The notes under the pieces were generated by a model. It was not told the DNA's origin. It saw nothing but the letters and a program-made list of their open reading frames with translations, and did no database searches. 64,000 nucleotides of DNA, from the NCBI GenBank assembly GCA_006218035.1, contig VBWC01000002.1:1-64000 (forward strand), in the 5' to 3' direction. Every line of letters starts with the position of its first letter. Within the stretch, counting starts at the first letter, position 1. Source of the stretch: Gammaproteobacteria bacterium (GTDB lineage: Bacteria; Pseudomonadota; Gammaproteobacteria; VBWC01). The position numbers and the translations under genes were made by a program. This document shows positions 9,946-51,537 of the stretch, piece after piece.

Positions 9946-11875
9946 TACTACTCTCCTTATCTATCACGCGGCTGCGACTCGCTATGTCGGCTGACAGGTG
10001 TTTTTGAAAGGCTTCCAGTGACATGCCTCCTAGGTCTTCGCCTGTACGCGTACGCACGGCCACGGTTCGTTCGTTCATTTCGCGATCCCCGATAATCAAC
10101 TGATACGGGACGCGACTCAGCGTGTGCTCGCGGATTTTAAAGCTGATCTTTTCATTTCTCAAGTCCGATTTGACCCTGAACCTCTGTTTTCTCAGGATTT
10201 CTTCAACCTCGGCGACGTATCCGGCCTGTTTGTCGGTAATATTCATCACGACCACCTGCAGCGGCGCCAGCCAGATCGGCAGCGAACCACCTGAATCCTC
10301 AATCAAAATACCGATAAACCGCTCCATCGACCCGAGTATGGCGCGGTGCAGCATCACCGGCACCTGCTTGCTGCCGTCCTCGGCGATAAAGTGGGCGCCC
10401 AACCGGCCCGGCATCGAAAAATCGACCTGCATCGTACCGCACTGCCAGATCCGCCCCAGGCAGTCCTTCAGCGAAAACTCGATCTTCGGCCCGTAGAACG
10501 CGCCCTCGCCCGGCTGCAGATCCCAGTCCAGATTCTTGTCGTTCAAGGCCTTTTCGAGCGCATGCTCGGCCTTGTCCCACGCACTGTCATCGCCGACGCG
10601 GTTTTCCGGCCGGGTCGACAACTTGATGATAATCTCGTTGAAGCCGAAGTCCGCGTACACCGTGAACAACAGATCGATAAACGCCGACACCTCGGCCTGG
10701 ATCTGCTTCTCGCTGCAAAATATATGGGCGTCGTCCTGCACGAAGTTGCGCAACCGCATCAGGCCGTGCAAGGTGCCAGACGGTTCGTTGCGATGGCACG
10801 AACCGAATTCCGCCAGGCGCAGCGGCAGGTCACGGTAACTGGTCACGCCCTGGTTGAAGATCTGCACATGGCACGGACAGTTCATCGGCTTGATCGCGTA
10901 CTCGCGGTTTTCCGAGCTGGTCGTGAACATGTCGGCGTGGAATTTTTCCCAGTGGCCGGATTTCTCCCACAGGCTGCGGTCCACCACCTGCGGCGTGCGC
11001 ACTTCCTGATAGCCGTGCTCAGCCAGCACCGAGCGGATGTAATTTTCGATTTCGCGGTAGACGGTCCAGCCGTTCGCGTGCCAGAAGATCATGCCCGGCG
11101 CTTCCGGCTGTATATGGAACAGGTCGAGGCGCTTGGCGAGTTTTCGGTGATCGCGCTTTTCGGCTTCCTCGATACGATGCAGATAGGCATTCAACGCCTT
11201 TTTATCCGGCCACGCGGTACCGTAGATACGCTGCAACATCTCGTTGCGCGAATCACCGCGCCAGTAGGCACCGGCCAGCTTGGTCAACTTGAACGCCTTG
11301 AGTTTGCCGGTGTTGGGCACATGCGGCCCACGGCACAGGTCGACGAAGTCATCCTGTCCGTAGAGCGATATCGGGTCGTGCGCCGGGATTTCCTCGATGA
11401 TGCGGGCCTTATAGTCTTCGCCGATACCCGCGAAATAATCGATCGCCTCTGCCCGCGATTTCACCGACCGGGCCACCGGTAAATCCTGCGCCGCCAGTTC
11501 GTTCATGCGCTGCTCGATCTTTTCGAGATCGTCCGGCGTAAAGCCGCGCGGATAGGCGAAGTCGTAATAAAAGCCGTCCTCGATGACCGGACCGATCGTC
11601 ACCTGCGCGTCGGGAAACAATTGCTTGACCGCGTGCGCGAGCAGATGCGCGGTCGAATGGCGGATGATTTCCAGGCCTTCGGGATCGCGCTCGGTGATAA
11701 TCGACAGGCGCGCGTCAGCGTCGATGACATGAGACATATCGACCACCTTGCCGTCGACCTTACCGGCCAGCGCGGCCTTGGCAAGACCCGCGCCGATCGA
11801 GGCCGCGACCTCCTGCACCGTGGGGGGATGATCGAATGTTCGCTGACTGTTGTCCGGCAGCGTGATGACCGGCAT
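9935..11875 (-). CDS. thrS: Threonine-tRNA ligase
   Basis: ThrS charges tRNA-Thr and edits mischarged serine. The ATG at 11875 ([14 protein letters not shown]) is the family start, giving 646 residues; the extra 42 codons in the ORF track read through a tRNA remnant and a terminator. Domains in order are TGS (about 1-62), the SAD editing domain with the [11 protein letters not shown] zinc/editing motif (about 75-85), the class II core with motif 2 ([20 protein letters not shown]) and the C-terminal anticodon-binding domain ([12 protein letters not shown] onward). It overlaps infC by 11 bases. No promoter is obvious between the upstream terminator and the start. Confidence 0.97.
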
Positions 11876-11918
11876 ATTCGCGTATCCAGTGTGTTGCCGG
11901 AGAGCCGTCCGGTGAACC

Positions 11919-11946
11919 AAAAAAAGCACCGCTGTCGAGGCGGTGC
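11919..11946 (-). terminator. Intrinsic terminator between tRNA-Val remnant and thrS
   Basis: On the minus strand GCACCGC pairs with GCGGTGC around the loop CTCGACA and is followed directly by seven T residues. It stands about 10 bases past the CCA of the tRNA-Val remnant and 44 bases before the thrS start. It is best explained as the terminator of the former tRNA gene, but it now lies in the probable thrS leader. Confidence 0.8.
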
Positions 11947-11956
11947 CGGTTAAATC

Positions 11957-12018
11957 TGGTAGGCGCGATTGGACTCGAACCAACGACCCCCACCATGTCA
12001 AGGTGGTGCTCTAACAGG
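11957..12018 (-). pseudogene. tRNA-Val(GAC) remnant, 5' part missing
   Basis: The minus strand from about 12018 reads GTTAGAGCACC, then the anticodon arm CACCTTGACATGGTG (loop TTGACAT, anticodon GAC). The T arm is CGTTGGTTCGAGTCCAATCG, and the end is CGCGCCTACCA. These parts match a bacterial tRNA-Val(GAC). A 5' acceptor strand complementary to CGCGCCT (AGGCGCG) and the first half of the D arm are absent; TGCTTTCGCACCT stands in their place. About 60 of 77 bases remain, so it is not expected to fold as a full tRNA. The encoded CCA and a following terminator are kept. Confidence 0.8.
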
Positions 12019-12065
12019 TGCGAAAGCATACAGGAATGCCCTTCCCGGTGACAAGGGGACGCCGG

Positions 12066-14105
<2,040 letters not shown>

Positions 14106-14219
14106 ACTCTTTCGGATACCTACGGATTTCAACTATTATAGCGTCGTCATACCGACTGAGTTTGTCACAAATACGCAATCAGGAATTCGTTCACCTACAC
14201 CGGACCGTCGACCAAGTAC

Positions 14220-15407
14220 ATGACCATTCAAGTTTCCAAGCGCGCACTAAGCATCAAACCGTCACCGACCCTGGCTGTCACGGCTCGGGCGAAAGAACTC
14301 AAGGCGGCCGGCAAGGATATCATCGGCCTCGGCGCCGGCGAACCCGATTTCGATACACCGGAGCACATCAAGAAGGCCGCGATCGACGCGATAAAAAAAG
14401 GCTTCACCAAGTACACCGCTGCCGAAGGCACGCCCGAATTGAAGCAGGCGATTATCGCCAAGTTCCAGCGCGACAATGCCCTCGCCTACAAGGCTGACCA
14501 GATTCTGGTTTCCTGCGGCGCCAAACACAGCCTCTATAATCTTGCCCAGGCGCTGCTCAACCCAGGCGACGAGGTGATCATTCCGGCGCCCTACTGGGTC
14601 TCGTACCCGGATATTGCACTGCTGGCCGGCGCGGTGCCGGTCATCGTCTCGGCGGGACTGGATCAGGGTTTCAAGATCTCCGCGAAACAGCTCGAATCGG
14701 CCATTACATCGATGACACGGCTGGTGGTCATCAACAGCCCGTCCAATCCGACCGGTGTTGGCTACACGCGCAAGGAGCTGTCGGCACTCGCGAACGTGCT
14801 GAAGAATCATCCGAAGATTACCATCGTCAGCGATGATATCTACGAACACATCTGGTGGGCCGACGATCCGTTCTGCAACATCCTCAACGTGTGTCCGGAA
14901 CTCTATAACCGTACGCTCGTCGTCAACGGCGTGTCGAAGTCGTACTCGATGACCGGCTGGCGCATCGGCTATACGGCGGGACCGGCAAACGTCATCAAGG
15001 CCATGGCCAACATCCAGTCGCAGAGCACGTCGAATCCGACGTCGATCGCGCAGGTCGCGGCACAGGCGGCGCTTGAAGGCGATCAGGGCTGCATTCAGGA
15101 GATGGTCGTCGCGTTCAAGAAACGCCATGATTTCGTGGTGGCAGCGCTGAACGACATCGACGGCGTCGAATGTCTCGAGTCCCAGGGCGCATTCTACAGT
15201 TTTCCGAACATGCGCGAGGTCATCAAGAAACTTGACGGCGTGCATAACGACCTGGAGCTCGCGGAGTACCTGATCAATGAAGCCAACGTCGCGCTGGTTC
15301 CCGGCTCGGCGTTCGGCGCCCCGGGGTATATGCGCCTGTCGTTCGCGACGGATATGAAGACGCTGGAAAAGGCCATGCAGCGCCTGAAAAAAGCGCTGAC
15401 CGTGTAA
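14220..15407 (+). CDS. aspC: Class I pyridoxal-phosphate aminotransferase (aspartate aminotransferase type)
   Basis: This is a 395-residue fold-type I aminotransferase of the Ib subgroup. It probably moves the amino group between aspartate and 2-oxoglutarate, with prephenate or aromatic substrates as alternatives. GLGAGEPDFDTP opens the substrate-binding region, SCGAKHSLYN and NSPSNPTG are cofactor-site motifs, SDDIYEHIWW holds the PLP-contacting Asp and Tyr, VNGVSKSYSMTGWRIGY carries the Schiff-base lysine, and RLSFATD holds the arginine that binds the substrate carboxylate. Divergent pairing with uvrB is common in gammaproteobacteria. The tRNA-Asn gene follows on the same strand. Confidence 0.85.
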   Translation: MTIQVSKRALSIKPSPTLAVTARAKELKAAGKDIIGLGAGEPDFDTPEHIKKAAIDAIKKGFTKYTAAEGTPELKQAIIAKFQRDNALAYKADQILVSCGAKHSLYNLAQALLNPGDEVIIPAPYWVSYPDIALLAGAVPVIVSAGLDQGFKISAKQLESAITSMTRLVVINSPSNPTGVGYTRKELSALANVLKNHPKITIVSDDIYEHIWWADDPFCNILNVCPELYNRTLVVNGVSKSYSMTGWRIGYTAGPANVIKAMANIQSQSTSNPTSIAQVAAQAALEGDQGCIQEMVVAFKKRHDFVVAALNDIDGVECLESQGAFYSFPNMREVIKKLDGVHNDLELAEYLINEANVALVPGSAFGAPGYMRLSFATDMKTLEKAMQRLKKALTV

Positions 15408-15515
15408 GGATCCCTGCCGCATAACACGAGCGCGCGGCAGCGGCCGGCGATTTGGCCATTTCTATTGACCCGCCGGGATGCCATCCGTACCATACGCACC
15501 TTCGATGTTTCCGGA

Positions 15516-15591
15516 TCCCCGGTAGCTCAGTCGGTAGAGCAGGTGACTGTTAATCATCTGGTCGGCGGTTCGAGTCCGTCCCGGGGAGCCA
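15516..15591 (+). tRNA. tRNA-Asn (anticodon GTT)
   Basis: This 76-base tRNA starts TCCCCGGTAGCTCAGTCGG and ends CCGGGGAGCCA. The acceptor arms TCCCCGG and CCGGGGA pair fully and CCA is encoded. The anticodon loop CTGTTAA gives anticodon GTT. The T arm is CGGCGGTTCGAGTCCGTC. A small inverted repeat followed by Ts (aacttattaagttttct) lies about 13 bases downstream and may terminate it. Confidence 0.98.
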
Positions 15592-15903
15592 TCTAAAACA
15601 ATAACTTATTAAGTTTTCTGATCAACGAATATCTGCTAATAGAGCAATAACCTCGGCCATAAAAATTCGCATTTCGACTGCTTATCCCTGTGGACTCCAA
15701 ATCGGCTCGCCAACTCTGACTTCTCGCATAGCCGTGAATTATGTGCTTGCGCATAGTCCATGACCTTTTTATACCCGGCGCGGCATAATCGCTAGTTAAC
15801 GGTGACGTTGTAACGTGTTCTGCTTACATCACGTTTAAACCAGTATCATGTTGGTATAACATTTTTCTTCCCGTGTTCAGCACCTAAAAAAGCAGGGTGT
15901 TCT
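15592..15903. other. Intergenic region between tRNA-Asn and the FRG genes
   Basis: These 312 bases contain no gene and look more AT-rich than the flanking core genes. A weak inverted repeat with a short T run follows the tRNA. The rest presumably contains the FRG promoter. No integrase fragment or copy of the tRNA 3' end was seen here. Confidence 0.4.
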
Positions 15904-16785
15904 GTGGCAACCGAAAATATCTCTACCGTCGAAATGACGTTGAAGGGCTTTCTGCAGTGGGCTCTGATAGAGCTAGGAGATCGGGCACCATATATGTTCA
16001 GAGGGGAGTCGGCTCTCTTCGACACGCCGCTAACGCCTACCTTGAACCGCTATTTTACGGGCGCGGAATCGGTCTCAAGTAAAGATCTACTGTTTTATGA
16101 GAACGGTCTATGGGATGAGTTTCGATCGAAGGCGTATAACTACGTCGAACAACCGTTGTTGCCGCCATGGGATCGCCAGAGCGAGTGGTGGTGGCTAATG
16201 CACCATTACGGAGTACCGACGCGTTTACTATCGTGGTCACGGTCACCGCTGGTCGCAGCGTACTTCGCCTGTTCTCAGGATATGGAGGTAAACGGATGTG
16301 TGTGGTTCGTGGACTCGATCGAAATAGATAAACAAACGCAAGCGAAATACAAGATTGGTCTTCAGCCGGATATGGCACAACTCCAGATCGGGCCTAACGA
16401 AGACTCGCTATGGCAGCGCAATGCTGCGCTCTTGAGGGAGGACGCACCGTCAGCAGTAGTTATAGGTGCCACACTTCAGGAGACCAGCAGGATCGCGGCA
16501 CAGCAAACGAAATTCACTTTGTGCATGAACGTCGCGACGTCCCAGTTCGATATTCTACGGGACGAATTGCCGGAGCTCAGCGCTGGCGGATCACCGAGTT
16601 TTGGAAAAATTATTATTAAGGCGGATGAAAAGCCCGTCTACTTCGAAAAACTTCAGGCACTTAACGCCAATGCACATGCGCTGTTTCCCGGGGAGGACGG
16701 ACTCGGTCGCGCCGGGACTGATTGGTTACTGAAAACAGTCTACGCACGGCGCAGTGGCCGTCCCACATTCACGGCGATCAGATGA
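15904..16785 (+). CDS. FRG-domain protein 1
   Basis: This 293-residue protein starts at a GTG preceded by GCAGGG. It carries the FRG domain, named for its Phe-Arg-Gly motif: YMFRGES at 30-36 and HYGVPTRLLSWSRSPLVAAYFAC at 101-123. The FRG domain occurs in many uncharacterised bacterial proteins, often in mobile or defence-associated islands, and its biochemical activity is not established as far as I know. There is no signal peptide or membrane segment, so it is probably cytoplasmic. It overlaps the next gene by 4 bases (ATGA) and resembles it along its length, including a shared C-terminal FPG-x-DGLG motif. The position just after a tRNA and the local base composition suggest acquired DNA. 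Confidence 0.85.
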   Translation: MATENISTVEMTLKGFLQWALIELGDRAPYMFRGESALFDTPLTPTLNRYFTGAESVSSKDLLFYENGLWDEFRSKAYNYVEQPLLPPWDRQSEWWWLMHHYGVPTRLLSWSRSPLVAAYFACSQDMEVNGCVWFVDSIEIDKQTQAKYKIGLQPDMAQLQIGPNEDSLWQRNAALLREDAPSAVVIGATLQETSRIAAQQTKFTLCMNVATSQFDILRDELPELSAGGSPSFGKIIIKADEKPVYFEKLQALNANAHALFPGEDGLGRAGTDWLLKTVYARRSGRPTFTAIR

Positions 16786-17603
16786 GCATTCACGAACGCG
16801 AAGTGAAATGGCATAACTTCGTCGGATTAGTTTCGGAGTTCGGCTTGCAGTATCCATATATCTATAGGGGGGAGGCGGAAACGTGGGAGCACCCTCTTGA
16901 TACATCTCTCCACCGGCGTATTAGAGCCTTGGCGGATAACCACCAGAAAAAGATTGAATACCGGACTGAATTCGAACTCCTCCGTGACGAAGCGGCGGTT
17001 CAGCGAATATTCATGTCTGGGGCATACCAGCATCTACGTTCGGAGGTCTTACCGATTAATGGCAACCGGTTCGACTGGTGGTGTCTGATGCAGCATTATG
17101 GCGCCCCAACCCGGCTTCTGGACTGGACGTGGTCTCCACTTGTTGCCGCGTACTTCGCGTGCATCGACAAGCGCGAGCAAGATGGCAGCATATGGTTTTT
17201 GTATATTCCCAACTTGAGCAAAAGGATGCTTAGGATCGACGACACCAGACCGCCCGCATCCGATAGGGAATTCGAAGAGTACTATCTCCGGCCGGATGCG
17301 CCTCAACTTGTACTGCCAGCAGCGCCATTCAAGCGCACGGATCGCATGATTGCCCAGCAAACGGTAATGAGCGTGAGTCGAAGCGTGAAAGCGTCTCAAT
17401 ATTTAATACTGAAAGATACCTTTGCGGATCAGAATGATTCACTGGGCTTTGGTAGGATGATAATCAAAGCAGCAGACAAGGCACAGTTCATCGCAAGGCT
17501 AGCGCGGCTAAACGTGACAGGGAACGTGTTGTTTCCTGGTATCGATGGTTTAGGCAAACATGTGGGCCAGCTATTGTCGGACAATATCCTCGGTTTGCAC
17601 TGA
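16782..17603 (+). CDS. FRG-domain protein 2 (tandem paralog)
   Basis: The track starts this ORF at 16722, but the ATG at 16782 overlaps the previous stop (ATGA) and gives 273 residues beginning MSIHEREVKW. It has the same layout as its neighbour: YIYRGEAETW at 26-35, HYGAPTRLLDWTWSPLVAAYFAC, and near the C-terminus LFPGIDGLGKHVGQLL. A tandem duplication followed by divergence is the simplest origin. Keeping two divergent copies in one translationally coupled unit suggests that they act together, for example as a hetero-oligomer, but this is inference. Confidence 0.85.
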   Translation: MSIHEREVKWHNFVGLVSEFGLQYPYIYRGEAETWEHPLDTSLHRRIRALADNHQKKIEYRTEFELLRDEAAVQRIFMSGAYQHLRSEVLPINGNRFDWWCLMQHYGAPTRLLDWTWSPLVAAYFACIDKREQDGSIWFLYIPNLSKRMLRIDDTRPPASDREFEEYYLRPDAPQLVLPAAPFKRTDRMIAQQTVMSVSRSVKASQYLILKDTFADQNDSLGFGRMIIKAADKAQFIARLARLNVTGNVLFPGIDGLGKHVGQLLSDNILGLH

Positions 17604-17832
17604 GGCAGGAATAAAGAAGGTCAAGGCCCATTTTGCCTATCAGATTGACTCCTTCCGTGTGCCGTCGAAACGCATCGGAACCCCCGCTCCTAACGCTTTC
17701 TGCATCAGCCGGAGCAGCAGAACATTCACATCATCAATGCCTCCGTGTGGGCCGAGACCGCAAAAGCGCGGGAAAGCTGTCTTAATTTCGCCAGTTCTAT
17801 TAACGCGTTGACCATCGACTATACTAATCAGC

Positions 17833-18243
17833 ATGTCTCACCACCCTACCCGCCGCACCCTGCTCAAGGTCTTCGCCGCCATTGTGGTACAGGGACTCAG
17901 CTGGGCGGCCGTTCCAGCGTCGGCGTACGCGCGCGTGCGCGACTTGTCCGCTGTCGATCCGCTGGAACATACGCTGCGGACGCTGTTCCCTGACAAAGAT
18001 ACCGCGAGTGCCATGGCGCGTCGTTATCGTGAGCATTATCCAGCGATGGCGGCCAACGCCCTGCCGAACGTACGCCGCTTGCTGGCGCCTTATTTTGGCG
18101 AGCCAACGCTGATCGCGGGCGCGATCAAACAGCAGCGATCAATCGACTTCGCGCAAGGCAACAGCGTGATTATCAACGGCTGGGTAGTCGCCCGCTGCGA
18201 GGCGGATCTTTGTTCAGCGGCGTTGCAGTTTTTGGATGTTTGA
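17833..18243 (+). CDS. Small Tat-signal protein paired with GMC oxidoreductase
   Basis: This 136-residue protein has an N-terminal RRTLLKVFAAIVVQGLSWAAVPASAYA segment. The twin arginine followed by a moderately hydrophobic run and AxA suggests export by the Tat pathway. The rest is mostly helical and ends CEADLCSAALQFLDV; no catalytic motif was seen. It lies 6 bases upstream of the GMC oxidoreductase. Small Tat-signal subunits are known to partner GMC enzymes, as in the gamma subunits of membrane gluconate and sorbitol dehydrogenases, and may carry the partner across the membrane. That role here is inferred from position and signal only. Confidence 0.6.
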   Translation: MSHHPTRRTLLKVFAAIVVQGLSWAAVPASAYARVRDLSAVDPLEHTLRTLFPDKDTASAMARRYREHYPAMAANALPNVRRLLAPYFGEPTLIAGAIKQQRSIDFAQGNSVIINGWVVARCEADLCSAALQFLDV

Positions 18244-18249
18244 TCGTCG

Positions 18250-19815
18250 ATGCTAGCTGACCTGCGCGGGATTCAGACCAAACAGATTGACGCCGACCTG
18301 TGCATTATCGGCGCAGGCGCGGCAGGCATGACGCTGGCGCGCGCGTTCATCGGGTCCGGTGTCCGCGTCTGTCTGCTCGAAAGCGGCGGCTTCGAACATG
18401 AAGAAGCGACGCAGGCACTCTACGATGGCGAAGACACCGGTTATCGCCAGCTCTATGATGTCGGCAAATCGCGCCTGCGGTTTTTCGGCGGCACCACTAA
18501 CCACTGGGTCGGGCACTGTGCGCCGTTGACCGAGATAGACTTTGAAACACGTCCGTGGGTGCCGTATAGCGGATGGCCGATTAACAAGGCGGCGCTGGAT
18601 CCGTACTACGCGCCGGCGCAGGCATTGTGCGAACTCGGTACAGACAGCTTCGACCTCGCCTCGTTTTCGGACATACGCCCCGACCTGCCGCCGTTCGATA
18701 CCGCTAAATTCTCACCCCGCGTCTGGCACCTCAGTCCACCGACCCGCTTCGGACAAAGATATCGCGATGCGCTGGTCAACGCCGCCAATATCGCCATTTA
18801 TCTGCATGCCAATGTCACCGAGCTGGAGACCAACCGGGATGTGTCACAGGTAGTCGGCGCCGGCGTGAAGACGCTGGACGGCCAGCAAACCAGAGTGGTT
18901 GCGCGTTACTTTGTACTGGCCTGCGGCGGCATCGAAAACGCCCGGATATTGTTGCTGTCGAACCGTTCGGCGCCCCGGGGGCTCGGCAACGACCATGACC
19001 TGGTCGGCCGGTTTTATATCGATCAGTTGCGCTGCGAGGAAGCGGCGTTCGTCGCGGCCGAGGACAATCGCCTGTTCGACACCATGGTCGGCGGTTTCCG
19101 GAAAAACGGTCTTGGTTTCGAGGCGATGCTCAGCCCGTCCGGAGCCACGCAAGAGCGCCATGAAACATTGAACTGGGTCGCCGAGTTCGAGACCATGCGG
19201 GCAACAAGCGACTGGGCGCTGTCGATGTACCACCTGAAGAATTTACTGCAAACGGGCCGGTGGCCCGCCGACCTCGGTCACGACATCTGGTCGGTGATCA
19301 CCCATCTCGACGCGGTCGGCAAGGACATATACCAACGCCAGACCGCGCGACCGTTGAGCATTCTGGCCCGGTGCGAGGTCGCGCCTGACCCGGAGAGCCG
19401 CATCACCCTGACAACGGAACGTGACGCGCTCGGACAAAACAAGGTGCGTCGCCACTTGCGGGTGACGCTACGCGAAAAACATACGCTGCGCAGCGCGATG
19501 CGTTCGATAGGCGAAGAGCTGGGCCGCATCGGCGCCGGTCGTGTCCGGCTGGCGGACTGGTTGCTGGCCGACAACGACGAGTGGCCCCGCCCGGAACAGC
19601 AGTACGCCGGTGTACATCACATCGGCACCACCCGTATGGCGGCTGATCCGGCACACGGCGTCGTTGACCGCGACTGTCGTGTGCACGGCATCGCGAATCT
19701 CTACGTCGGCGGCAGCTCGGTCTTCCCTACCGCCGGGTACGCGCATCCAACGCTGTCGATCGTTGCCATGGCGCTGCGCCTCGCAGACCACCTGAAGCAG
19801 CGCCTGCCGCGCTAG
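18250..19815 (+). CDS. GMC-family FAD-dependent oxidoreductase
   Basis: The 521-residue flavoenzyme belongs to the glucose-methanol-choline family and probably oxidises an alcohol or sugar. The FAD-binding motif CIIGAGAAGMTLARAF is at about 18-33, a second FAD region (FFGGTTNHWVGHC) near 79-91, and a nucleotide-site segment (CGGIENARILL) near 225. The C-terminal domain has GVHHIGTTRMAADPAHGVVD and GGSSVFPTAGYAHPTLSIVA; the two histidine regions correspond to the catalytic His-His or His-Asn pair. It has no signal peptide of its own, so if exported it may travel with the upstream Tat protein. Substrate and electron acceptor are not evident. Confidence 0.85.
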   Translation: MLADLRGIQTKQIDADLCIIGAGAAGMTLARAFIGSGVRVCLLESGGFEHEEATQALYDGEDTGYRQLYDVGKSRLRFFGGTTNHWVGHCAPLTEIDFETRPWVPYSGWPINKAALDPYYAPAQALCELGTDSFDLASFSDIRPDLPPFDTAKFSPRVWHLSPPTRFGQRYRDALVNAANIAIYLHANVTELETNRDVSQVVGAGVKTLDGQQTRVVARYFVLACGGIENARILLLSNRSAPRGLGNDHDLVGRFYIDQLRCEEAAFVAAEDNRLFDTMVGGFRKNGLGFEAMLSPSGATQERHETLNWVAEFETMRATSDWALSMYHLKNLLQTGRWPADLGHDIWSVITHLDAVGKDIYQRQTARPLSILARCEVAPDPESRITLTTERDALGQNKVRRHLRVTLREKHTLRSAMRSIGEELGRIGAGRVRLADWLLADNDEWPRPEQQYAGVHHIGTTRMAADPAHGVVDRDCRVHGIANLYVGGSSVFPTAGYAHPTLSIVAMALRLADHLKQRLPR

Positions 19816-19838
19816 CGCACGCTACGCGTGACCTTCAC

Positions 19839-20939
19839 TTACGAAATTGCACGCTGAAACTCGACGCGGCCTTTAAGGTCGTCGGGTATTTTCACCTGAT
19901 CGGGCACGGCCTCGAACGTATGGAACACCAGCCGGGTGATACCGGGAAGATAGAAGTGCTGATACTGCTTGCGGACCCATTCTTCACCCGGCGCATCGGC
20001 GGCGTCGGTAAACACCGCGGCAAGTAATTCGCCCCCGCTGTCATACAAGAACGGGTTATTCACCAAGAATGATCTCGCCCCGGCAGTGGCGTGTAACAAA
20101 CGAATATAAAAGCCGCTGCTTCGATCGCCGAGTACGCCCATGCCCCATTTCTTCTTGTACTGCAGCACGCCATCCTTGAGAAAGGCACGCGTCGCACCCA
20201 GATGCACCTTGTCATACCCTCGCTCGGACAAATACAGATAGCGGTAATAATAAAGCGCGGCCAGCGCGCCGGCCTTAACATGGTCATAGTTTCCGTTCAC
20301 GACGCCGCTGCACCAGAATCTCGCACCGTCGCGTTCATAAACGATGATTTCACCGGCGATAACGTCGCCATCCCGTTTAACCAGCAGCAAGTCACTACGC
20401 TCAGATGCGCTCATCACGGTATCCAGCGAGTGCGGAACCGCTTCATCGCCGTGGGCCTGCAGGGTATAGGGCAGATACATGCGATGGTAGAAGTCCAGAA
20501 ACAGATCCTTACGCCGGGTTACTTCATACGTAAGCCCGCTTTTGCGGATGCGGCGCAAATCGCTTTTCAAGCGTTCACTTACCTTCATGAGGCGGGATAT
20601 ATCGTCGAACGAGGTCTCCCCGTCTATCCAGACCGGCACATAGTAGCCACACGCCCCGCTCCACGCCTGCAACCGTCTATTGATTTCCATGATCAACACG
20701 TCACCCCGGTCGTGGCGCGCCCGACGGATTTTCCTGACATCCCAAAGCCATTTCTTTCCAAGATAGATCTCGGTGAAATTTTCGGCAAACGCCATATTGG
20801 CGATGTAGTTTTTGTTCTTTTCACAGCCGGCATACACAATGCTCAGGCTGGCGCCTGAATCCCGCTCATTACCGGTCAACGACCACAGACCGAAACGATA
20901 GTCGCGAGCAAATTCGCGCAAAGCGGTCACTATGCCCAT
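19839..20939 (-). CDS. GNAT/FemAB-like acyltransferase
   Basis: The ATG at 20939 is preceded by an AGGA element and gives 366 residues; the ATG at 20996 lacks one. The middle and C-terminal part fits a GNAT fold of the FemAB-like group: RLKSDLRRIRKSGLTYEV, FYHRMYLPYTLQAHG, LLLVKRDGDVIAGEIIVYERDG, then YYYRYLYLSERGYDKVHLGATRAFLKDGVLQYKKKWGMGV. This type transfers acyl or aminoacyl groups, often onto cell-envelope sugars or peptides. It has no signal peptide. It converges with the GMC oxidoreductase gene, with 23 bases between the stops. The substrate is unknown. Confidence 0.65.
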   Translation of the reverse strand: MGIVTALREFARDYRFGLWSLTGNERDSGASLSIVYAGCEKNKNYIANMAFAENFTEIYLGKKWLWDVRKIRRARHDRGDVLIMEINRRLQAWSGACGYYVPVWIDGETSFDDISRLMKVSERLKSDLRRIRKSGLTYEVTRRKDLFLDFYHRMYLPYTLQAHGDEAVPHSLDTVMSASERSDLLLVKRDGDVIAGEIIVYERDGARFWCSGVVNGNYDHVKAGALAALYYYRYLYLSERGYDKVHLGATRAFLKDGVLQYKKKWGMGVLGDRSSGFYIRLLHATAGARSFLVNNPFLYDSGGELLAAVFTDAADAPGEEWVRKQYQHFYLPGITRLVFHTFEAVPDQVKIPDDLKGRVEFQRAIS

Positions 20940-21225
20940 AGTAAATGCGGTTCCTGTGTGGAGAGTGTCGGGAAGACCGTGCGCGACCTTGGCCATCGCT
21001 CGATATCCGACTTCGCGGCCAGGTCATCGTTACCGGCTAGACCGCATCGAAATCGGGTAACAACAGTATATCGAACGCGCCTGGTTTTTCGTATGGTCAC
21101 TGGATTCGCATTCGGACGAGATCCGCTTCGTCACAGGAGGAAAGCCGCGGAACTACCCTGCCATGCGATCCGGCCAGGGTATATTTTGAATCAGGATCTT
21201 TGCGCTGGCCGATAACGATCCGGGA

Positions 21226-21534
21226 TCAAACCGATTCGATCAGGCGCGCCAGATTCCGGAACGGATAAAGGCGTAACTCCTCAATAAACATGAAACCGGT
21301 TCCATTCTGGTGATGTATCACGGTCGCCAGTACGCGACGCCGTTCCCGGCTATCCTCGACCAGCAAATTGAATTCAATCTCGACCAGCGCGTTCTTCGGC
21401 AGATCCTCCTGGGTCTCGATCAACATGCCGTCCAGACTGATATTCCGCGCACGGCAATCTGGCAAGTTACGGGCGCGGCAGCGCAGTGCTACCGTGAAAT
21501 TCACTTGATGACGAACATTCTGGCGATGCTCCAT
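21226..21534 (-). CDS. PilZ-domain protein
   Basis: The ATG at 21534 has a ribosome site (AAGG) six bases away and gives 102 residues (MEHRQNVRHQVNF). The track start at 21573 is a TTG. The sequence has the PilZ signature: an N-terminal RhxxR element (RQNVRHQVNF), then CRARNISLDGMLIET, which fits the D/N-x-S-x-x-G part of the c-di-GMP-binding barrel, and a final strand GTGFMFIEEL. It is a single-domain protein and a likely c-di-GMP receptor, or a non-binding adaptor. A decayed bacteriohemerythrin gene lies just upstream on the same strand. Confidence 0.75.
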   Translation of the reverse strand: MEHRQNVRHQVNFTVALRCRARNLPDCRARNISLDGMLIETQEDLPKNALVEIEFNLLVEDSRERRRVLATVIHHQNGTGFMFIEELRLYPFRNLARLIESV

Positions 21535-21668
21535 GGCTGCCTTAACGTCCCGAACAAGCCCAAACTTTAACAATACCTGTCGCGCAAACCCGCGCCGTTA
21601 TCCCGTCTCATGATATCGACCGCCGCTTAATACCCGCCACGCCGATATCGGCCCGGCGACGGACGCGG

Positions 21669-22085
21669 TCACGATGCGCCGCGTTTTCCAGGAAATGGCA
21701 CATAGGCCTGGTCGATTTTCGGAATATGATTCGTTAACCCGTGCTTCAGAAAAACGATCATATCCACAGGCACCCGCCTGCCGGGCCCGATACTGTTCCG
21801 GCAACTCGGTTACCTGCACCGAGAAGTTAGCGTGCTCGGCGATATGGCCTTCCGACCCCGGATATCCGCGCCGATTCAGCATACCTTTCTCAACGCGAAA
21901 ATGGTTGTCGGCGGAGTCCATCAATCCGTCGCGAACCTCGCCGATGACCTACGGATCGGGTTCCGGTTGCGACGCTTCGTCATACCATCGGTTGGTTGCG
22001 TCCACCAGCGAGCGGTGCTGGATGTCGATGGTTCGAAAACCGGTGAGAAACGCGTCCGTCCAGGCATGAATGCCATGATGGTCAT
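21669..22085 (-). pseudogene. Bacteriohemerythrin pseudogene (frameshifts and internal stop)
   Basis: Translating the minus strand and joining frames recovers a bacteriohemerythrin, an oxygen-binding di-iron four-helix protein. The pieces are WTDAFLTGFRTIDIQHRSLV, then after an in-frame TAG VIGEVRDGLMDSADNHFRVEKG, then GSEGHIAEHANFSVQV, and in another frame FLKHGLTNHIPKIDQAYVPF. All iron-ligand motifs can be found: the His of IQHR, HxxxE in HFRVE, HxxxH in HIAEH and HxxxxD in HIPKID. Lesions are a frame change just after the ATG at 22085 (MTIMAFM-), the TAG codon and a frame change before FLKHG. Three lesions make sequencing error alone unlikely. The ORF track shows only fragments. Confidence 0.8.
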
Positions 22086-22326
22086 CTCCGCTCACCGTTT
22101 ACACCGGATTTTTTCGCGCCAATCCGGCCCCGCTATCGCCAAACCGTGTTTCCTTCTACCCTATCATGGTTTTCCAGTCCTTAGGACATCGACCGGGGCA
22201 GCACCCGGGCTGCCGATATTTTCCTGCCGAATATCTGCAGGGATCACTTGTCATTAGCGATATATAGGTTTGTTTACTATAATTTTCGCACTTGCAAACA
22301 AGCCAAATAATTTTCTGAACGCCGCC

Positions 22327-22875
22327 ATGCCCCGCAAGCCACCCGTATCCGACCTCGACGCACAGTTGTTCCGCGACGCCGTCGCCGACGTCCGTCCACT
22401 GCCGGCCGCGGCTGAAGACCAGACCCAGCGCAGTAAACGACCGGCACCGCGACCACAGAAACGGCGCGATGAACGCCCGATGGCATCCACGCCGTCCAAC
22501 GAGATGCGCGAGGTCACGCCGGTCGGCGCGGAAGAATCCCTGGACTTCGTTCGACCCGGGCTGCAGCACAGCCTGTTACGACGGCTGCGGCGCGGCCAGA
22601 TTGCGCTCGAAGGCAGACTCGACCTGCATGGCATGAGCGCGAATGAAGCCGGCCTGGCGCTCGACCGGTTTCTTGAACGCAGCACCGCTGATCGCCGCCG
22701 CTACGTGCTCGTGGTTCACGGCAAGGGACACCGGTCCGCCACCGCCTACCCGGTATTGAAATCCCAGGTGAACGGCTGGTTGCGGCAACGCCCGGATGTG
22801 CTTGCGTTCTGCTCGGCGCTGCCCGCGGACGGCGGCGCCGGCGCTGTTTACATCCTGCTGAAAACAAGGCGGTAG
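22327..22875 (+). CDS. Smr (MutS2 C-terminal) domain protein
   Basis: The ATG at 22327 (MPRKPPVSDLDAQLF) gives 182 residues; the earlier track start has no family support. After a charged, disordered N-terminal half comes the Smr domain: GRLDLHGMSANEAGLALDRFL, then LVVHGKGHRS, and a final strand GAVYILLKTRR. LDLHG and HGKG are the hallmark motifs of this nuclease-like fold. It resembles the stand-alone SmrA/SmrB proteins of gammaproteobacteria; SmrB cleaves mRNA at collided ribosomes and SmrA is less defined. Which one this is cannot be settled here. A TATAAT box at 22278-22283 may be its -10 element. Confidence 0.85.
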   Translation: MPRKPPVSDLDAQLFRDAVADVRPLPAAAEDQTQRSKRPAPRPQKRRDERPMASTPSNEMREVTPVGAEESLDFVRPGLQHSLLRRLRRGQIALEGRLDLHGMSANEAGLALDRFLERSTADRRRYVLVVHGKGHRSATAYPVLKSQVNGWLRQRPDVLAFCSALPADGGAGAVYILLKTRR

Positions 22876-22960
22876 TTTGCTGCTCAATATGCCAAAATGC
22901 GCCTTTTCCATCGCCCGCTAAAATGCGATAAATCGTCTTATACCAGCTGGATCCTGCATC

Positions 22961-25900
22961 ATGCCCGACACGGCTGTCACTGCCGACGCTTCCGAACCGC
23001 GCGCAAGCCCGCTGGCGCCGCCATTACCGTCTGAGCCGGGCGACCGCATCGCCTGGGGCCGGCTTTACGGCAGCAGCGACGGACTTGTCGTCGCGATGGC
23101 GGCGCACCGGCACCACGCGCCGGTGGTGCTGATCACGGCCGATGCCCGTACGTCTGCGCGTGTGACGCAGGAGATCGAGTTTTTCAATCCGGATCCGCAG
23201 AATCTGCCGCTGCTGACTTTTCCGGATTGGGAGACATTGCCGTACGACGCGTTTTCGCCCCACCAGGACATCGTCTCGGAACGGCTGGCGTCGTTATACC
23301 GCCTGCCACGGCTGACCCACGGCATGCTCGTGGTATCCGTCACGACCGCGATGCACCGGTTGCTACCGCACGACTATCTGGACCGGTCGAGCCTGATGCT
23401 CGACGTTGGCGAGAAACTTGATCCCACGGCCATGCGCGACCGCTTCACCACGTGCGGTTACCGTTGCGTCTCGCAAGTGATGGAACACGGCGAGTTTGCC
23501 GTGCGCGGCAATCTTGTCGATCTGTTCCCGATGGGCAGCGACATCCCCTACCGCATCGACCTGTTCGATGACGAGGTCGAGAGTATTCGTGCCTTCGACC
23601 CCGAGACACAGCGATCCATGGCCAGCGTAGCTTCCGTGCGCCTGCTGCCGGCACGCGAGTTCCCGCTCGACGAAGCGGCCGTCGCCCGCTTCCGCGAACA
23701 CTATCGCGCGACCTTCGAGGGTGATCCGCAGCGCAGCATAATCTATCGGGACGTCAGCAACGGTATTGCGCCGGCAGGTATCGAATACTACCTGCCGTTG
23801 TTCTTCGACAACACCGCAACGCTGTTTGATTATCTGCCCCGGAACACCCTGTTCATCATCAGCGACGGGGCCAGGGAGGCGGCCGATCAGTTCTGGCGCG
23901 ATGCCGTGGAACGATACGAGCAACATCGCCTCGATCCCGAGCGCCCGCCGTTGCCGCCGCAACAGATTTACCTGCAGTCACCCGAATTCTTCCAGTTGGC
24001 CGGCACGCTGCCGCGCGTCGCCCTCGGTCACTTTGAGCTGGAGAAACGTGCCGGCTTTTACAACATGGCGACCCGGGCTGTGCCGACCCTGACGATCCAG
24101 CACCGGGCCGCAGAACCGGCCGCGGCTCTGACGACGTTTCTAAAGAATTTTGACGGACGCGTGCTGTTTGCCGCTGAAAGCGCCGGCCGGCGCGAAACTC
24201 TGCTGGAACTGCTCCGTCAGTACCGCGTGCATCCCGCGCCGTTTGAGCGCTGGCAGGCATTTTTGGATAGCTCCGCACCGGTCGGCATCACAGTGGCTGC
24301 GCTGGAGAACGGGTTGATGCTCGAGGACCCGTCCATCGCCGTCATTGCCGAAGTGCAGCTGTTCGGCGAGCAGGCCATGCAGCGCCGCCGCCGCAAGGCA
24401 CGTACCCGCGATTCCGACGCCGTGGTACGCAACCTGACCGAGCTGGAGATCGGCGCGCCGGTCGTACATGAAGACTATGGCGTGGGCCGTTACCAGGGGT
24501 TGCAGATACTCGACGTCGGTGGATCAACGACGGAGTTTCTGACGCTTACTTACGCCGATGGCGACAAACTCTACGTACCGGTCGCGTCGCTGCATCTGAT
24601 CAGCCGTTACACCGGCGCGTCTCCCGAGCACGCGCCGTTGCACAGGCTCGGTGGCGAGCAGTGGCAACGCGCCAAGCGGCGCGCTGCCGAACGCGTCCGC
24701 GATGTCGCCGCCGAGTTGCTGGATATCTACGCCCGACGCGCCGCACGCAGCGGCCATGCGTTTCCGGTGGCCGACGACGAATACGCCGGCTTCTCAGCCA
24801 CTTTCCCGTTCGAGGAAACGCCGGACCAGCAGTCGGCGATCGATGCGGTACTGGCCGACATGAGACGCGAACAACCCATGGACCGTTTGGTGTGCGGCGA
24901 CGTCGGCTTCGGCAAGACCGAAGTGGCGATGCGCGCGGCATTCGTCGCGACCCAGGGGGGCAAGCAGGTCGCGGTCCTCGTGCCGACCACGCTGCTCGCG
25001 CAACAGCATTTCCAGAATTTCCAGGATCGATTCGCCGACTGGCCGGTACGCATCGATCTGTTATCGCGATTCCGCAGCCGCAAGGAACAGGCGGCGGTGT
25101 TGCAGGAGCTTGAGGACGGCAGGCTCGATATCGTCATCGGCACGCATAAGCTCCTGCAGGAAAACGTCCGGTTTGCCCGGCTGGGTCTGGTGATACTCGA
25201 CGAAGAGCATCGCTTCGGTGTCCGGCAGAAAGAGCGCATGAAGGCGCTGCGTTCGGAGGTGGATGTGCTGACACTGACCGCGACGCCCATTCCGCGCACA
25301 CTTAATATGGCGTTATCCGGCATCCGTGATCTGTCGATCATCGCGACGCCGCCGGCGCACCGTCTTGCTATCAAGACATTTGTCAGCGAATGGAACGATC
25401 CGCTGATCCGCGAGGCCATTCTGCGTGAAATACGCCGCGGCGGGCAGGTGTATTTTCTGCACAATCAGGTCGAATCGATCGAGAACACGGCTCGCAAACT
25501 CGCCCAGCTGGTGCCGGAGGTCGAGATACGGGTGGCGCACGGCCAGATGCGCGAGCGTGACCTTGAACGCGTCATGCTGGACTTCTACCACCAGCGTTTC
25601 AATGTGCTGGTATGCAGCACGATCATCGAAAGCGGCATCGACATCCCGACGGCGAATACCATCATCATCAACCGCGCCGATCGGCTCGGACTGGCGCAGC
25701 TGTATCAGCTACGCGGGCGCGTCGGGCGTTCGCACCATCGCGCCTACGCCTATCTGCTGGTGCCGCCGCGCAACGCGATGACGGCGGACGCGATCAAGCG
25801 CCTGGAGGCCATCGAGTCGCTGGAAGAGCTCGGTGCCGGATTCATGCTGGCGACGCACGATCTTGAAATCCGCGGTGCTGGCGAATTGCTTGGCGATGAA

Positions 25901-26449
25901 CAGAGCGGCCAGATGCACGAGATCGGCTTTACGCTCTATACCCAATTGCTGGAACGGGCCGTGGCGGCGCTGAAATCGGGGCAGCAGCCGGACCTCGACA
26001 AGCCGCTGGCGCATGGCGCCGAGGTCGACCTGGGTATTCCAGCGCTGATTACCGCGGATTATCTGCCGGATGTTCATAGCCGGCTGGTGATGTACAAACG
26101 CATCGCGAACGCCGCATCAGTCGAGGAGTTGCGAGACCTGCAGGTCGAAATGATTGATCGCTTCGGTCTGCTGCCGGAGGCCACCAGGAACCTGTTCGCG
26201 ATCACCGAGCTGAAAGTGCAGGCGCAACCACTGGGGATACGCAAGATAGAAGCGGGGAATGACGGCGGCAGAATTATTTTCGATGAGCAGCCACGGATTG
26301 ACGCCGCGAAAATCATCCAGCTGGTGCAGAAACAACCGCAGGTCTATCGGCTGCAGGGGCAGGAAAAACTGCGTTTCAGCATGAAACTCCCGGCGGGTGC
26401 GCAACGGGTTCAGGCGGTCGCCAGGGTGCTGGACGCGATAACGCCCTGA
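22961..26449 (+). CDS. mfd: Transcription-repair coupling factor
   Basis: Mfd is the ATP-driven translocase that removes RNA polymerase stalled at lesions and recruits UvrA. The 1162-residue length is standard. An N-terminal UvrB-like module (about 20-350, with LPYDAFSPHQDIVSERL and MEHGEFAVRGNLVDLFP) is followed by the RNA-polymerase-interaction domain (HEDYGVGRYQGL near 506 onward). The RecG-like helicase core has Walker A GDVGFGKTEVA near 645, a DEEH box near 746, TATPIPRTLNMAL and QLRGRVGRSHHRAYAYLL. The C-terminal TRCF autoinhibitory domain closes the protein. It converges with the chemoreceptor gene, with only 14 bases between the stops. Confidence 0.98.
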   Translation: MPDTAVTADASEPRASPLAPPLPSEPGDRIAWGRLYGSSDGLVVAMAAHRHHAPVVLITADARTSARVTQEIEFFNPDPQNLPLLTFPDWETLPYDAFSPHQDIVSERLASLYRLPRLTHGMLVVSVTTAMHRLLPHDYLDRSSLMLDVGEKLDPTAMRDRFTTCGYRCVSQVMEHGEFAVRGNLVDLFPMGSDIPYRIDLFDDEVESIRAFDPETQRSMASVASVRLLPAREFPLDEAAVARFREHYRATFEGDPQRSIIYRDVSNGIAPAGIEYYLPLFFDNTATLFDYLPRNTLFIISDGAREAADQFWRDAVERYEQHRLDPERPPLPPQQIYLQSPEFFQLAGTLPRVALGHFELEKRAGFYNMATRAVPTLTIQHRAAEPAAALTTFLKNFDGRVLFAAESAGRRETLLELLRQYRVHPAPFERWQAFLDSSAPVGITVAALENGLMLEDPSIAVIAEVQLFGEQAMQRRRRKARTRDSDAVVRNLTELEIGAPVVHEDYGVGRYQGLQILDVGGSTTEFLTLTYADGDKLYVPVASLHLISRYTGASPEHAPLHRLGGEQWQRAKRRAAERVRDVAAELLDIYARRAARSGHAFPVADDEYAGFSATFPFEETPDQQSAIDAVLADMRREQPMDRLVCGDVGFGKTEVAMRAAFVATQGGKQVAVLVPTTLLAQQHFQNFQDRFADWPVRIDLLSRFRSRKEQAAVLQELEDGRLDIVIGTHKLLQENVRFARLGLVILDEEHRFGVRQKERMKALRSEVDVLTLTATPIPRTLNMALSGIRDLSIIATPPAHRLAIKTFVSEWNDPLIREAILREIRRGGQVYFLHNQVESIENTARKLAQLVPEVEIRVAHGQMRERDLERVMLDFYHQRFNVLVCSTIIESGIDIPTANTIIINRADRLGLAQLYQLRGRVGRSHHRAYAYLLVPPRNAMTADAIKRLEAIESLEELGAGFMLATHDLEIRGAGELLGDEQSGQMHEIGFTLYTQLLERAVAALKSGQQPDLDKPLAHGAEVDLGIPALITADYLPDVHSRLVMYKRIANAASVEELRDLQVEMIDRFGLLPEATRNLFAITELKVQAQPLGIRKIEAGNDGGRIIFDEQPRIDAAKIIQLVQKQPQVYRLQGQEKLRFSMKLPAGAQRVQAVARVLDAITP

Positions 26450-26463
26450 TCTGTTCTGACGAG

Positions 26464-28038
26464 TCAGGTCCGGAACTGAACGACCAGGCGCTGCAAGCGT
26501 GCCGCCAGCTCCTGAACCCGGTCGCAGGCTCTTTCGGTCTGTTCGGCCCCTTCGGACGTTTCCTCGGCATCCTGGTGCACGGCGTGTATCGACTTGTTTA
26601 TTTCTTCCACGACCGAGGTCTGTTCCTCCGCAGCCGTAGCGATCTGGTCCGTCATCGACCGTATTGTGGTAATCATCTCCATGATGTTTTCCAACGAGCT
26701 GCCGGCATCGGCTGCATGCTCGACGCTCTCTTTTGCCTTCATCTGACTCAACTGCATGGTCTGTGCCGCGCGGGAGGCGTCCTGCTGCAGCGATTCAATG
26801 ATTTCCTTTATTTCCGCGGTCGATTGCTGCGTACGATGCGACAGATTACGCACCTCATCGGCAACCACGGCGAAACCGCGGCCCTGCTCTCCGGCCCGTG
26901 CCGCCTCGATCGCTGCGTTCAATGCCAGCAGATTGGTCTGGTCGGCGATGCCGCGAATCACATCAAGCACCTTGCCGATGTCACCGCTGCGCGTCTCGAC
27001 CGTCTTGATCGTGCCCGCCAGCCGCTCGATTTCCTCGGCGAGTCCGTCGATCTTGTTGACGGTCTCCATGACAATGACCTTGCCCGTTTGTGCCGTCGTT
27101 TCGGCAATGATCGCTGCCTGCGCGGTCTCGATGGTGTTTCTGGCGACCTCCTGTACAGTAGATGACATCTGGTTCATCGCGGCAGCTGCCTGTTCGGCAT
27201 GCGCCTGATTCTGGCCCATCACGATACTGGCTTGTCCGGCGATGCTCGTCATGCGTGCCGAGGCGTCCGCAAGTTCGCTTGACGCGTCGGCAACGCGACC
27301 AAGCGCGGTGCGGATGCGCGCTTTAAGAAGCTTTACAACGACGCGCAGTTGCACGACGTCGTCATGCTCGCCGCCGAATATTCTGTTTGATAGCGCGTTA
27401 TCCATGACGTTACGGGTTTCGCGGGCCAGGCGCGCCATCGGTTTGGCGAGAACGTGACTGGCGATGAACGACAGCACGATGGCGCAAAATGCTGCCGCGA
27501 CGCCGGCACCAAATCCGGCATTGGCATACCATGCCAGCATCAACAGCGGCGGCATCGCAACGAGGAGCATGCTCAAGCCTATTTTTGAGCGCAGGCTGGA
27601 ATCGCTGTAGCTTGGAATCCGCGGTCCCGACCCGTGTAGCCGTGCGTATACCGCCTCGGTACGTCTGATGTCGTCCCGATCCGCTGGCGTCCGGACCGAC
27701 TGGTAACCGACTACCTGCTGCCTGTCGTCATACAGCGGACAGACATACGCCTCTACCCAGTAGTGATCGCCGCTCTTGCAGCGGTTCTTGATAACCCCCA
27801 GCCATTGGCGCCCTGCGATAAGGTTACCCCAGAAATCGGCGTACACCCCCGGCGGAACATCCGGGTGACGAACGATATTATGACTCTGACCGAGCAGTTC
27901 ATCGCGCGAAAACCCGGACACGCTCACAAAGTCGTCGTTGACGTAGGTCACGACGCCCTTCAGATCCGTCGCCGAGATCAGGACCTTGCCACGATCCAGA
28001 TGCTGCTCGACACCGGTCACCGGCTGGTTGTTTTTCAT
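26464..28038 (-). CDS. Aer-like PAS-domain methyl-accepting chemotaxis protein
   Basis: The 524-residue receptor has an N-terminal PAS domain (about 18-120: [57 protein letters not shown]). This arrangement is typical of Aer-type energy or redox sensors and FAD-binding PAS domains. Two close transmembrane segments follow at about 153-200 with no periplasmic domain between them. The cytoplasmic signalling domain contains the conserved hairpin tip ([39 protein letters not shown]), which binds CheA and CheW. No other chemotaxis genes are in the window. Confidence 0.9.
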
Positions 28039-28164
28039 GACAAATACGCGACGTGGCGCGCTGGTCTAATCCGATTGAGTAAATTTTAGAAATCCCTGCC
28101 CCAGGGACGACCCCTCCCAGTTATCGGTAGATCGACATGAAACCTTGATAGCCGGAGGGTCGTT

Positions 28165-28210
28165 GGGAAAATAGCCCGGACAGTGGCTACATCGGCACCA
28201 CGGACCGGGC
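28165..28210 (-). terminator. Possible terminator after def
   Basis: On the minus strand, just past the def stop, GCCCGG pairs with CCGGGC and an inner GTGG pairs with CCAC across a small internal loop. The hairpin is followed by TATTTTCCC. The stem is good but the T run is short. Confidence 0.4.
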
Positions 28211-28212
28211 GC

Positions 28213-28755
28213 CTAACTCTCGGGAAAGGAGTCCGGTTTGCCGGATTCCGCCAGTTCGTCGTCGAAACCGAACATGCGCATATCCCGGATACGCTGCGGA
28301 TAGAGGATACCATCAAGATGGTCGCATTCATGCTGTACGACGCGCGCGTGAAATCCGTCGACTTTCCGGTCAATGACGTTCCCGTGCTGATCCCTGCCGC
28401 GGTACCGGATCACCCGATATCGGGGAACGAGACCCCGCATGCCGGGAACGCTCAGACACCCTTCCCAGCCTTCCTCGAGGCCGTCGTCGAACACGGTAAT
28501 TTCCGGATTGATCAACACGGTGGTCGGCACCGGTTCGACATCCGGGTAACGCGGATTGGCGTCAACACCGAATATGACGACACGCAGCCCGACTCCGATC
28601 TGCGGAGCGGCCAGCCCGGCCCCGTTGGCTGCCGCCATCGTATCGAACATATCGCTAATCAGGGCGTCGAGCGCCGGGGTATTAAACTCCGTCACCGGGA
28701 CAGCGGTGTCCAGCAACGTCTGTTCACCGATACGCAGAATCTTTTTAATGGCCAT
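28213..28755 (-). CDS. def: Peptide deformylase
   Basis: This metalloenzyme removes the formyl group from nascent N-terminal formyl-methionine. The three family motifs are present: GAGLAAPQ (45-52), EGCLS and HECDH, whose Cys and two His bind the metal, with the catalytic Glu inside HECDH. The 180 residues make it a normal-length type I enzyme. It is not next to fmt; it sits divergent from csiV with about 85 bases between starts. It may therefore be a second def copy in the genome, which this window cannot show. Confidence 0.95.
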   Translation of the reverse strand: MAIKKILRIGEQTLLDTAVPVTEFNTPALDALISDMFDTMAAANGAGLAAPQIGVGLRVVIFGVDANPRYPDVEPVPTTVLINPEITVFDDGLEEGWEGCLSVPGMRGLVPRYRVIRYRGRDQHGNVIDRKVDGFHARVVQHECDHLDGILYPQRIRDMRMFGFDDELAESGKPDSFPES

Positions 28756-28839
28756 AGGTCAAGACTTGGCTACAATAGTGGCTGCCCGGCAGGACAATAC
28801 GGGTTTCAGGAACATTACCGAACACGCTATTTTAAAATA

Positions 28840-29739: not shown

Positions 29740-29762
29740 GCGGTACCCGGCCAACGGCCCGA

Positions 29763-31047: not shown

Positions 31048-31132
31048 AGACAATCCGGTAGTCGCAAACTCGTTATGGTTCTTGATCCGGATTATAGGAG
31101 GGATGGGCGGGATTCACCACCCTTGCGCGAGG

Positions 31133-46820: not shown

Positions 46821-47066
46821 TGTTGTTATTCCGTCAACCGATTTTCTACTAATAGCAGTCTCTTCGCAGCGGTTCTTGCTCCCTCGCGGACCGATGTCCA
46901 ACGCAATAAATCCCGCCTCTGGACTAATCGCGCCCCAGGGTGCCTAAGTGAAGAATGATACTCCGTTTGTACAGGGGTACGCTACTTTTACTTAGAAAAC
47001 CGTGGCTTCCATGCTTTCTACAGGCGTTCTGCTGAAAGATCTCCTGCGCCACAGCTATTCCGACAT

Positions 47067-48185: not shown

Positions 48186-48250
48186 ATTGAACCCGCCTCT
48201 TGCGTCCGTCTGAGCCCATTATTATTATCCAAATAAATCTCTTTAACGGA

Positions 48251-49216: not shown

Positions 49217-49268
49217 ATCATAATCCCGCTCAATCCTCACTAAACGATTCTCGTCAACTGCGGAGTCC

Positions 49269-50402: not shown

Positions 50403-50409
50403 TTCTTCC

Positions 50410-51519: not shown

Positions 51520-51537
51520 GGGTCGTGTCGAGTGACA

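What the first reader, a model, noticed from the sequence alone, without database searches (positions are those of the whole stretch)
15516..17603. Tandem, translationally coupled FRG-domain genes inserted beside tRNA-Asn
Two divergent paralogs with intact FRG signatures overlap by an ATGA junction just after a tRNA gene, in sequence more AT-rich than the core. FRG proteins are frequent in defence and mobile islands but their activity is not settled. A co-translated pair with no other partner could be a self-contained two-component system, and is the best candidate here for something undescribed.
Basis: partly seen in the sequence, partly recalled or inferred. Interest (0 to 1): 0.7.

Follow-up and report, generated by a model that had tools for sequence, protein, structure and literature searches.

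The report
Tandem FRG defence-gene pair at tRNA-Asn
A small piece of foreign-looking DNA beside a tRNA gene carries two overlapping copies of a gene family linked to bacterial defence against viruses, one copy canonical and one altered in its signature motif; such side-by-side pairs proved rare, but the family itself is already a known defence candidate.

Summary
Two FRG-domain genes (A 15904-16785, B 16782-17603, + strand) overlap by ATGA downstream of tRNA-Asn. They lie in a 2.24-kb low-GC segment absent from the only other genome held of the order, where 196 unrelated bp sit between 94-95% identical flanks. Both pass Pfam FRG and match PADLOC candidate PDC-S15. They are each other's closest relatives (tree support 100/99): an old tandem duplication from an unsampled lineage. 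One correction: gene A is not signature-intact. It has H and S where the family has Q and D (D in 55/56 unbiased homologues); gene B keeps both. Surveys found 88 other FRG matches in 74 genomes, none adjacent; plasmids and viral contigs gave no pair either. FRG genes elsewhere sit beside restriction and mobility genes; matched control stretches do not. Predicted structures (pLDDT 84 and 89) give only weak fold hits, but the best are ADP-ribosyltransferases, agreeing with a published assignment. Best reading: a mobile anti-phage locus in which B is the presumed NAD-using effector and A a diverged partner. Activity, heteromer and defence are inferred, not shown. A new variant of a known kind.

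The parts
15516..15591 (+). tRNA-Asn (GTT); its 3' end plus one T is the left limit of sequence shared with the congener
   Evidence: ARAGORN; Rfam; alignment with L029
15593..17832 (.). 2240-bp variable segment holding only the two FRG genes; replaced by 196 unrelated bp in the congener; GC 50.6%
   Evidence: no other copy in either genome
15904..16785 (+). Gene A: FRG protein, 293 aa, GTG start; diverged copy
   Evidence: PF08867 67.4 bits; PDC-S15 1.5e-28; model pLDDT 83.7, pTM 0.84
16000..16002 (+). Gene A R33 of the (F/Y)RG motif, invariant in the family
16201..16236 (+). Gene A hallmark stretch HHYGVPTRLLSW: H100 and S110 where the family has Q and D
16782..16785 (+). ATGA overlap of A stop and B start (expected translational coupling)
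   Evidence: sequence
16782..17603 (+). Gene B: FRG protein, 273 aa, ATG start; keeps the hallmark Q and D; departs at T194 (family G) and M196 (family F)
   Evidence: PF08867 75.1 bits; PDC-S15 1.4e-32; model pLDDT 89.0, pTM 0.88
16866..16868 (+). Gene B R29 of YRG, invariant
17091..17126 (+). Gene B hallmark stretch QHYGAPTRLLDW with Q104 and D114
17355..17357 (+). Gene B Q192 (AQQ motif before a predicted strand), invariant

Best explanation
A horizontally acquired two-gene anti-phage locus. An FRG gene was duplicated in tandem in a lineage not sampled here, the copies diverged to 35% identity while staying open and co-translated, and the block came to lie behind tRNA-Asn in this genome. 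FRG proteins resemble the ADP-ribosyltransferase (ART) superfamily. Gene B, canonical at the hallmark residues, is taken to be the active NAD-consuming effector that halts or kills an infected cell. Gene A, predicted to fold alike but lacking two near-invariant motif residues, is taken to be a regulatory partner (inhibitor or sensor half of a heteromer) made in fixed ratio through ATGA coupling. Shown: the genes, overlap, site, duplication, motif loss in A, and the family's neighbourhood bias. Inferred: ART activity, NAD as substrate, defence role, interaction of A with B.
For: Gene family and pair. Non-core composition. Congener lacks it between 94-95% identical flanks. Sister genes, 100/99; 135 bits to each other against at most 63 to any other FRG then in hand. 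Gene A departs at Q104 and D114 (B numbering), D being 55/56 and Q 50/56 in homologues found with Pfam's model; B keeps both. Defence context of the family: neighbours of 20 FRG genes match 88 PADLOC models against 2 for control stretches on the same contigs; at least 6 of the 20 loci carry such a gene: type I methyltransferases (L170, and L183 as its 54% identical homologue), a type IV-type HNH nuclease (L171), GmrSD/NsnA-like genes next to FRG (L172, L174), an LmuA-like gene (L167); integrases and resolvases are near too. FRG genes are common in viral contigs (220 stretches) and occur on plasmids. ART resemblance: all top six PDB fold hits of A and several of the best of B are ARTs, individually not significant; published assignment of Frg to the ART superfamily with a suggested NADase role (PMC9503650).
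Against: No fold hit reaches E 0.001, and profile comparison with the RES family of ARTs was negative (E 0.29). I found no experiment in the held literature showing activity or defence for an FRG protein. The segment has no integrase, no att-like repeat and no other defence gene. With a single pair known, co-evolution of A and B cannot be tested. Gene A might simply be a decaying copy.
Confidence: 0.45

Rival explanations
1. Two independent enzymes: both FRG proteins are active, with different triggers or targets; the pair is a plain tandem duplication with no heteromer.
For: Both reading frames are open, fold well and keep R, G, R, H, T, R and the final Q. FRG genes elsewhere are not paired with a second FRG gene, so the unit needs no such partner.
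Against: Gene A has lost D and Q that nearly all homologues keep; the only other D-less homologue seen (L007) also has H at the Q position, hinting at a linked change. ATGA coupling suggests fixed-ratio production.
Confidence: 0.25
2. Toxin and antitoxin: A is a catalytically dead FRG that binds and silences B; loss of A frees B. A sub-case of the best explanation without phage sensing.
For: A comes first and is the degenerate one. No separate antitoxin or HTH gene is present in the segment.
Against: No paralogue-type antitoxin is known to me for this family, and other FRG genes stand without such a partner.
Confidence: 0.15
3. Gene A is a decaying duplicate, B the only functional gene; the pair means nothing beyond an ordinary single-gene FRG locus.
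For: Departed motif residues and a longer branch (1.03 against 0.81).
Against: The frame of 293 codons is intact at 35% identity to B, which a decaying copy would hardly keep; all eight invariant positions of the alignment are kept.
Confidence: 0.1
4. Not defence: an RNA- or nucleotide-processing enzyme pair (as the KptA branch of ARTs is) or another cellular function.
For: The ART superfamily includes RNA 2'-phosphotransferases (general knowledge); APE0204 (1wfx), which I recall as one of these, is a weak fold hit of A.
Against: Patchy occurrence (46/399 and 33/369 genomes), absence in the congener and enrichment of restriction genes beside FRG genes.
Confidence: 0.05

Closest known systems
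PADLOC PDC-S15 (candidate phage-defence FRG proteins)
   Same: Both proteins match its models (best PDLC04938, 1.5e-28 and 1.4e-32; B over nearly its full length).
   Different: As I recall the naming, S marks single-gene candidates; here two coupled copies, one departed at the motif. PDC-S15 is itself only a candidate.
Frg clade of the ART superfamily (Iyer et al. 2022, PMC9503650)
   Same: Same domain; predicted structures draw ART structures as best, though weak, hits.
   Different: The cited role (NADase effector) is a prediction; no tandem pair is described in the passages read.
phrog_4962 (phage proteins of unknown function)
   Same: Both proteins match its C-terminal part (3.9e-22, 5.6e-30).
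   Different: phrog_4962 is longer (467 positions), with an extra N-terminal part absent here.
RES/Xre and DarT/DarG toxin-antitoxin systems (from general knowledge)
   Same: ART-superfamily toxin encoded with a partner gene.
   Different: There the partner is unrelated to the toxin (HTH or macrodomain); here the partner is a paralogue. The RES profile does not match FRG.
FRG protein of IMG/VR contig 3300005804_000109 (L060)
   Same: Nearest relative of the pair in the tree (98/85), 30% identical to B.
   Different: Single FRG gene with canonical Q and D; followed by an unrelated 235-aa gene.

Membership tests
FRG domain family (PF08867) | Match above the curated cut-off of 25 bits | tested here: met
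   67.4 bits (A), 75.1 bits (B)
FRG domain family (PF08867) | N-terminal (F/Y)RG motif | tested here: met
   FRG at A 32-34, YRG at B 28-30; R and G invariant
FRG domain family (PF08867) | Second motif QHxGxPTRLLDW | tested here: inconclusive
   Met in B; A has H for Q and S for D
PADLOC PDC-S15 | Model match | tested here: met
PADLOC PDC-S15 | Phage protection | not testable with these tools
   needs plaque assays; no report found for the family in the held literature
ART superfamily | ART fold | tested here: inconclusive
   best fold hits are ARTs but none reaches E 0.001; RES profile comparison negative
ART superfamily | NAD binding or cleavage | not testable with these tools
   no biochemical data
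Two-component FRG system | Recurrent adjacency of two FRG genes in other genomes | tested here: not met
   0 adjacent pairs among 88 other matches in 74 genomes, among viral loci or plasmid records
Integrase-borne tRNA island | Integrase gene and repeated tRNA end | tested here: not met
   no second tRNA end in the window; the segment holds only the two FRG genes

The most novel reading that the evidence does not exclude
A heteromeric FRG system: a pseudoenzyme-like FRG paralogue senses phage or restrains its canonical twin, a two-gene ART-type defence unit not described before.
Probability: 0.22. Interest if true: 0.6.

Novelty: new variant of a known kind. Interest (0 to 1): 0.4.

Why it matters
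FRG genes occur in about one in ten of the genomes sampled, are listed as phage-defence candidates and have no shown activity that I could find. A natural pair with one motif-intact and one motif-altered member points to residues that may matter (R, H, D, final Q) and gives a compact test case for whether FRG proteins are ART-type effectors and how they are held in check.

Tried and rejected
Close relatives of the pair: none in genome contigs, viral contigs, plasmids or phages beyond about 30% full-length identity. Att repeats of the tRNA end: none. Remnant genes in the spacers: no match for the 3' spacer as DNA or for its reverse-strand ORF in plasmids, no RNA family but the tRNA. A solved FRG structure by sequence: none for B. 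FRG against RES by profile: negative (one search was a failed first attempt on a wrong ORF); KptA could not be tested (one sequence only). Read-through from the tRNA: the congener has a possible hairpin with six T after the tRNA and the window has no terminator-like site there, but the scan does not count the hairpin, so this stays a hint.

Full report
Observation. The pair is real and at the stated place. tRNA-Asn (GTT) is at 15516-15591. Gene A runs GTG 15904 to TGA 16785, gene B ATG 16782 to TGA 17603, sharing ATGA. Both pass Pfam FRG far above its cut-off, and only these two FRG matches exist in the 3.01-Mb genome. A longer TTG start for B (16722) exists; I take the ATG because it gives the overlap and a short N-terminus like that of many homologues.

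The site. Only two genomes are held for the order to which this genome belongs. In the other (same genus; aspC 97% identical) the same region is present: window 11865-15592 aligns at 93.7% and 17833-31396 at 95.1%, but window 15593-17832 (2240 bp) corresponds to 196 bp of unrelated sequence. The left limit is the 3' end of the tRNA plus one base; the right limit is the ATG of the next gene (17833). No copy of the segment is found elsewhere in either genome. There is no second tRNA end and no integrase, so it does not look like a standard integrase island. With two genomes, gain here and loss there cannot be told apart by the site alone. Composition favours gain: insert GC 50.6% against about 60% in the flanks, GC3 58% against 65-81% in six neighbouring genes, and no 2240-bp window in about the first 45 kb is as AT-rich. 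The far end of the window (46-63 kb) is AT-rich too, so composition by itself is not proof.

Origin of the pair. A and B are 35% identical over 255 aa and score 135 bits against each other, against at most 63 bits for any other FRG protein in hand at that point. In a tree of 80 FRG proteins they are sisters with 100/99 support; next comes a single FRG protein of a viral contig (L060; 98/85). So the pair is a tandem duplication that has stayed together long enough to diverge strongly, in a lineage I could not sample.

Rarity. FRG matches occur in 46 of 399 genomes of the phylum and 33 of 369 of the class. Leaving out this genome and counting shared ones once, that is 88 matches in 74 genomes; none are adjacent, the closest on one contig being about 6 kb apart (G046:C100). 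FRG loci from viral contigs (80 from the main scan) hold no second FRG gene, and each plasmid record found has one place only.

Motif asymmetry. In homologues collected with Pfam's model and mostly not by the motif, R29, G30, R45 and Q192 (B numbering) are invariant, H105 is 55/56, D114 55/56 and Q104 50/56. B keeps all of these. A keeps the rest but has H100 for Q and S110 for D. The single other homologue without D (L007) also has H at the Q position. The second set, found by a motif pattern that does not include D, shows D in 50/50.

Structure. With an alignment of 52 sequences, AlphaFold2 gives confident monomers: B pLDDT 89.0, pTM 0.88; A 83.7, 0.84, A being uncertain at 154-165 and at both ends. 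Fold search of the PDB gives no hit at E 0.001, but A's first six hits are all ADP-ribosyltransferases with others following, and B's best hit and several of its next are ARTs; that these entries are ARTs is general knowledge. The best viral hit is an ART-PolyVal-like protein. TM-scores are low (about 0.2). A profile test against the RES family was negative. Iyer and colleagues (PMC9503650, read) place Frg in the ART superfamily and suggest a NADase role; their source paper is not held. I take ART membership as likely, not shown here.

Neighbourhood of the family. For 20 FRG genes on long contigs I compared ORFs within 4 kb with ORFs of matched stretches 150 kb away on the same contigs. The 112 FRG neighbours match 88 PADLOC models at E 1e-15; the 117 control ORFs match two models, one protein each. 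Many of the 88 are overlapping restriction-modification models that hit the same protein, so the count of genes is far smaller: at least 6 of 20 loci carry such a gene (L167, L170, L171, L172, L174; L183 by homology of its gene to L170's methyltransferase). Two loci (L172, L174) have a GmrSD/NsnA-like gene directly next to FRG. Integrases and resolvases also occur. This supports a defence and mobile-element setting for the family; it is not evidence on this pair itself.

Reading. The likeliest account is a mobile anti-phage locus with B as the canonical, presumably NAD-consuming effector and A as a diverged partner kept in fixed ratio by coupling. The defence setting is supported for the family, the ART nature is supported weakly here and by a published statement, the asymmetry is shown, and the cooperation of A and B is inferred from coupling and motif loss only. 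Rivals are two independent enzymes, toxin and paralogue inhibitor, a decaying copy, and a non-defence role.

Verdict. Real, correctly located, horizontally variable, rare in arrangement, in a family already listed as a defence candidate: a new variant of a known kind.

Noticed in passing
L172:4446-6276 and L174:5697-7671: In two different genomes an FRG gene is directly followed by a GmrSD_N/NsnA-like gene (42% identical to each other), a possible FRG plus nuclease unit.
   Followed up: partly
G000:C62:744-1172, C62:7247-7702, C53:15988-16413: The window's own genome has three RES-domain (ART-superfamily) matches; the congener G001 has none at E 1e-10.
   Followed up: no
L007: An FRG protein that, like gene A, has H and a non-acidic residue at the usual Q and D positions.
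   Followed up: no
G046:C100 and C153: One genome with four FRG matches, three on one contig at 6 and 17 kb spacing.
   Followed up: no
window 46000-63000: A long stretch with GC 42-56%, mostly near or below 51%, against about 60% before it; possible island.
   Followed up: no
window 15593-15903 against L029 3752-3830: The congener has a possible hairpin with six T after tRNA-Asn; the window has none there, so the FRG genes might be read through from the tRNA promoter.
   Followed up: partly
L152, L145, L149: FRG matches inside long open frames (951, 566 and 501 codons), so fusions of FRG to other domains may exist.
   Followed up: no
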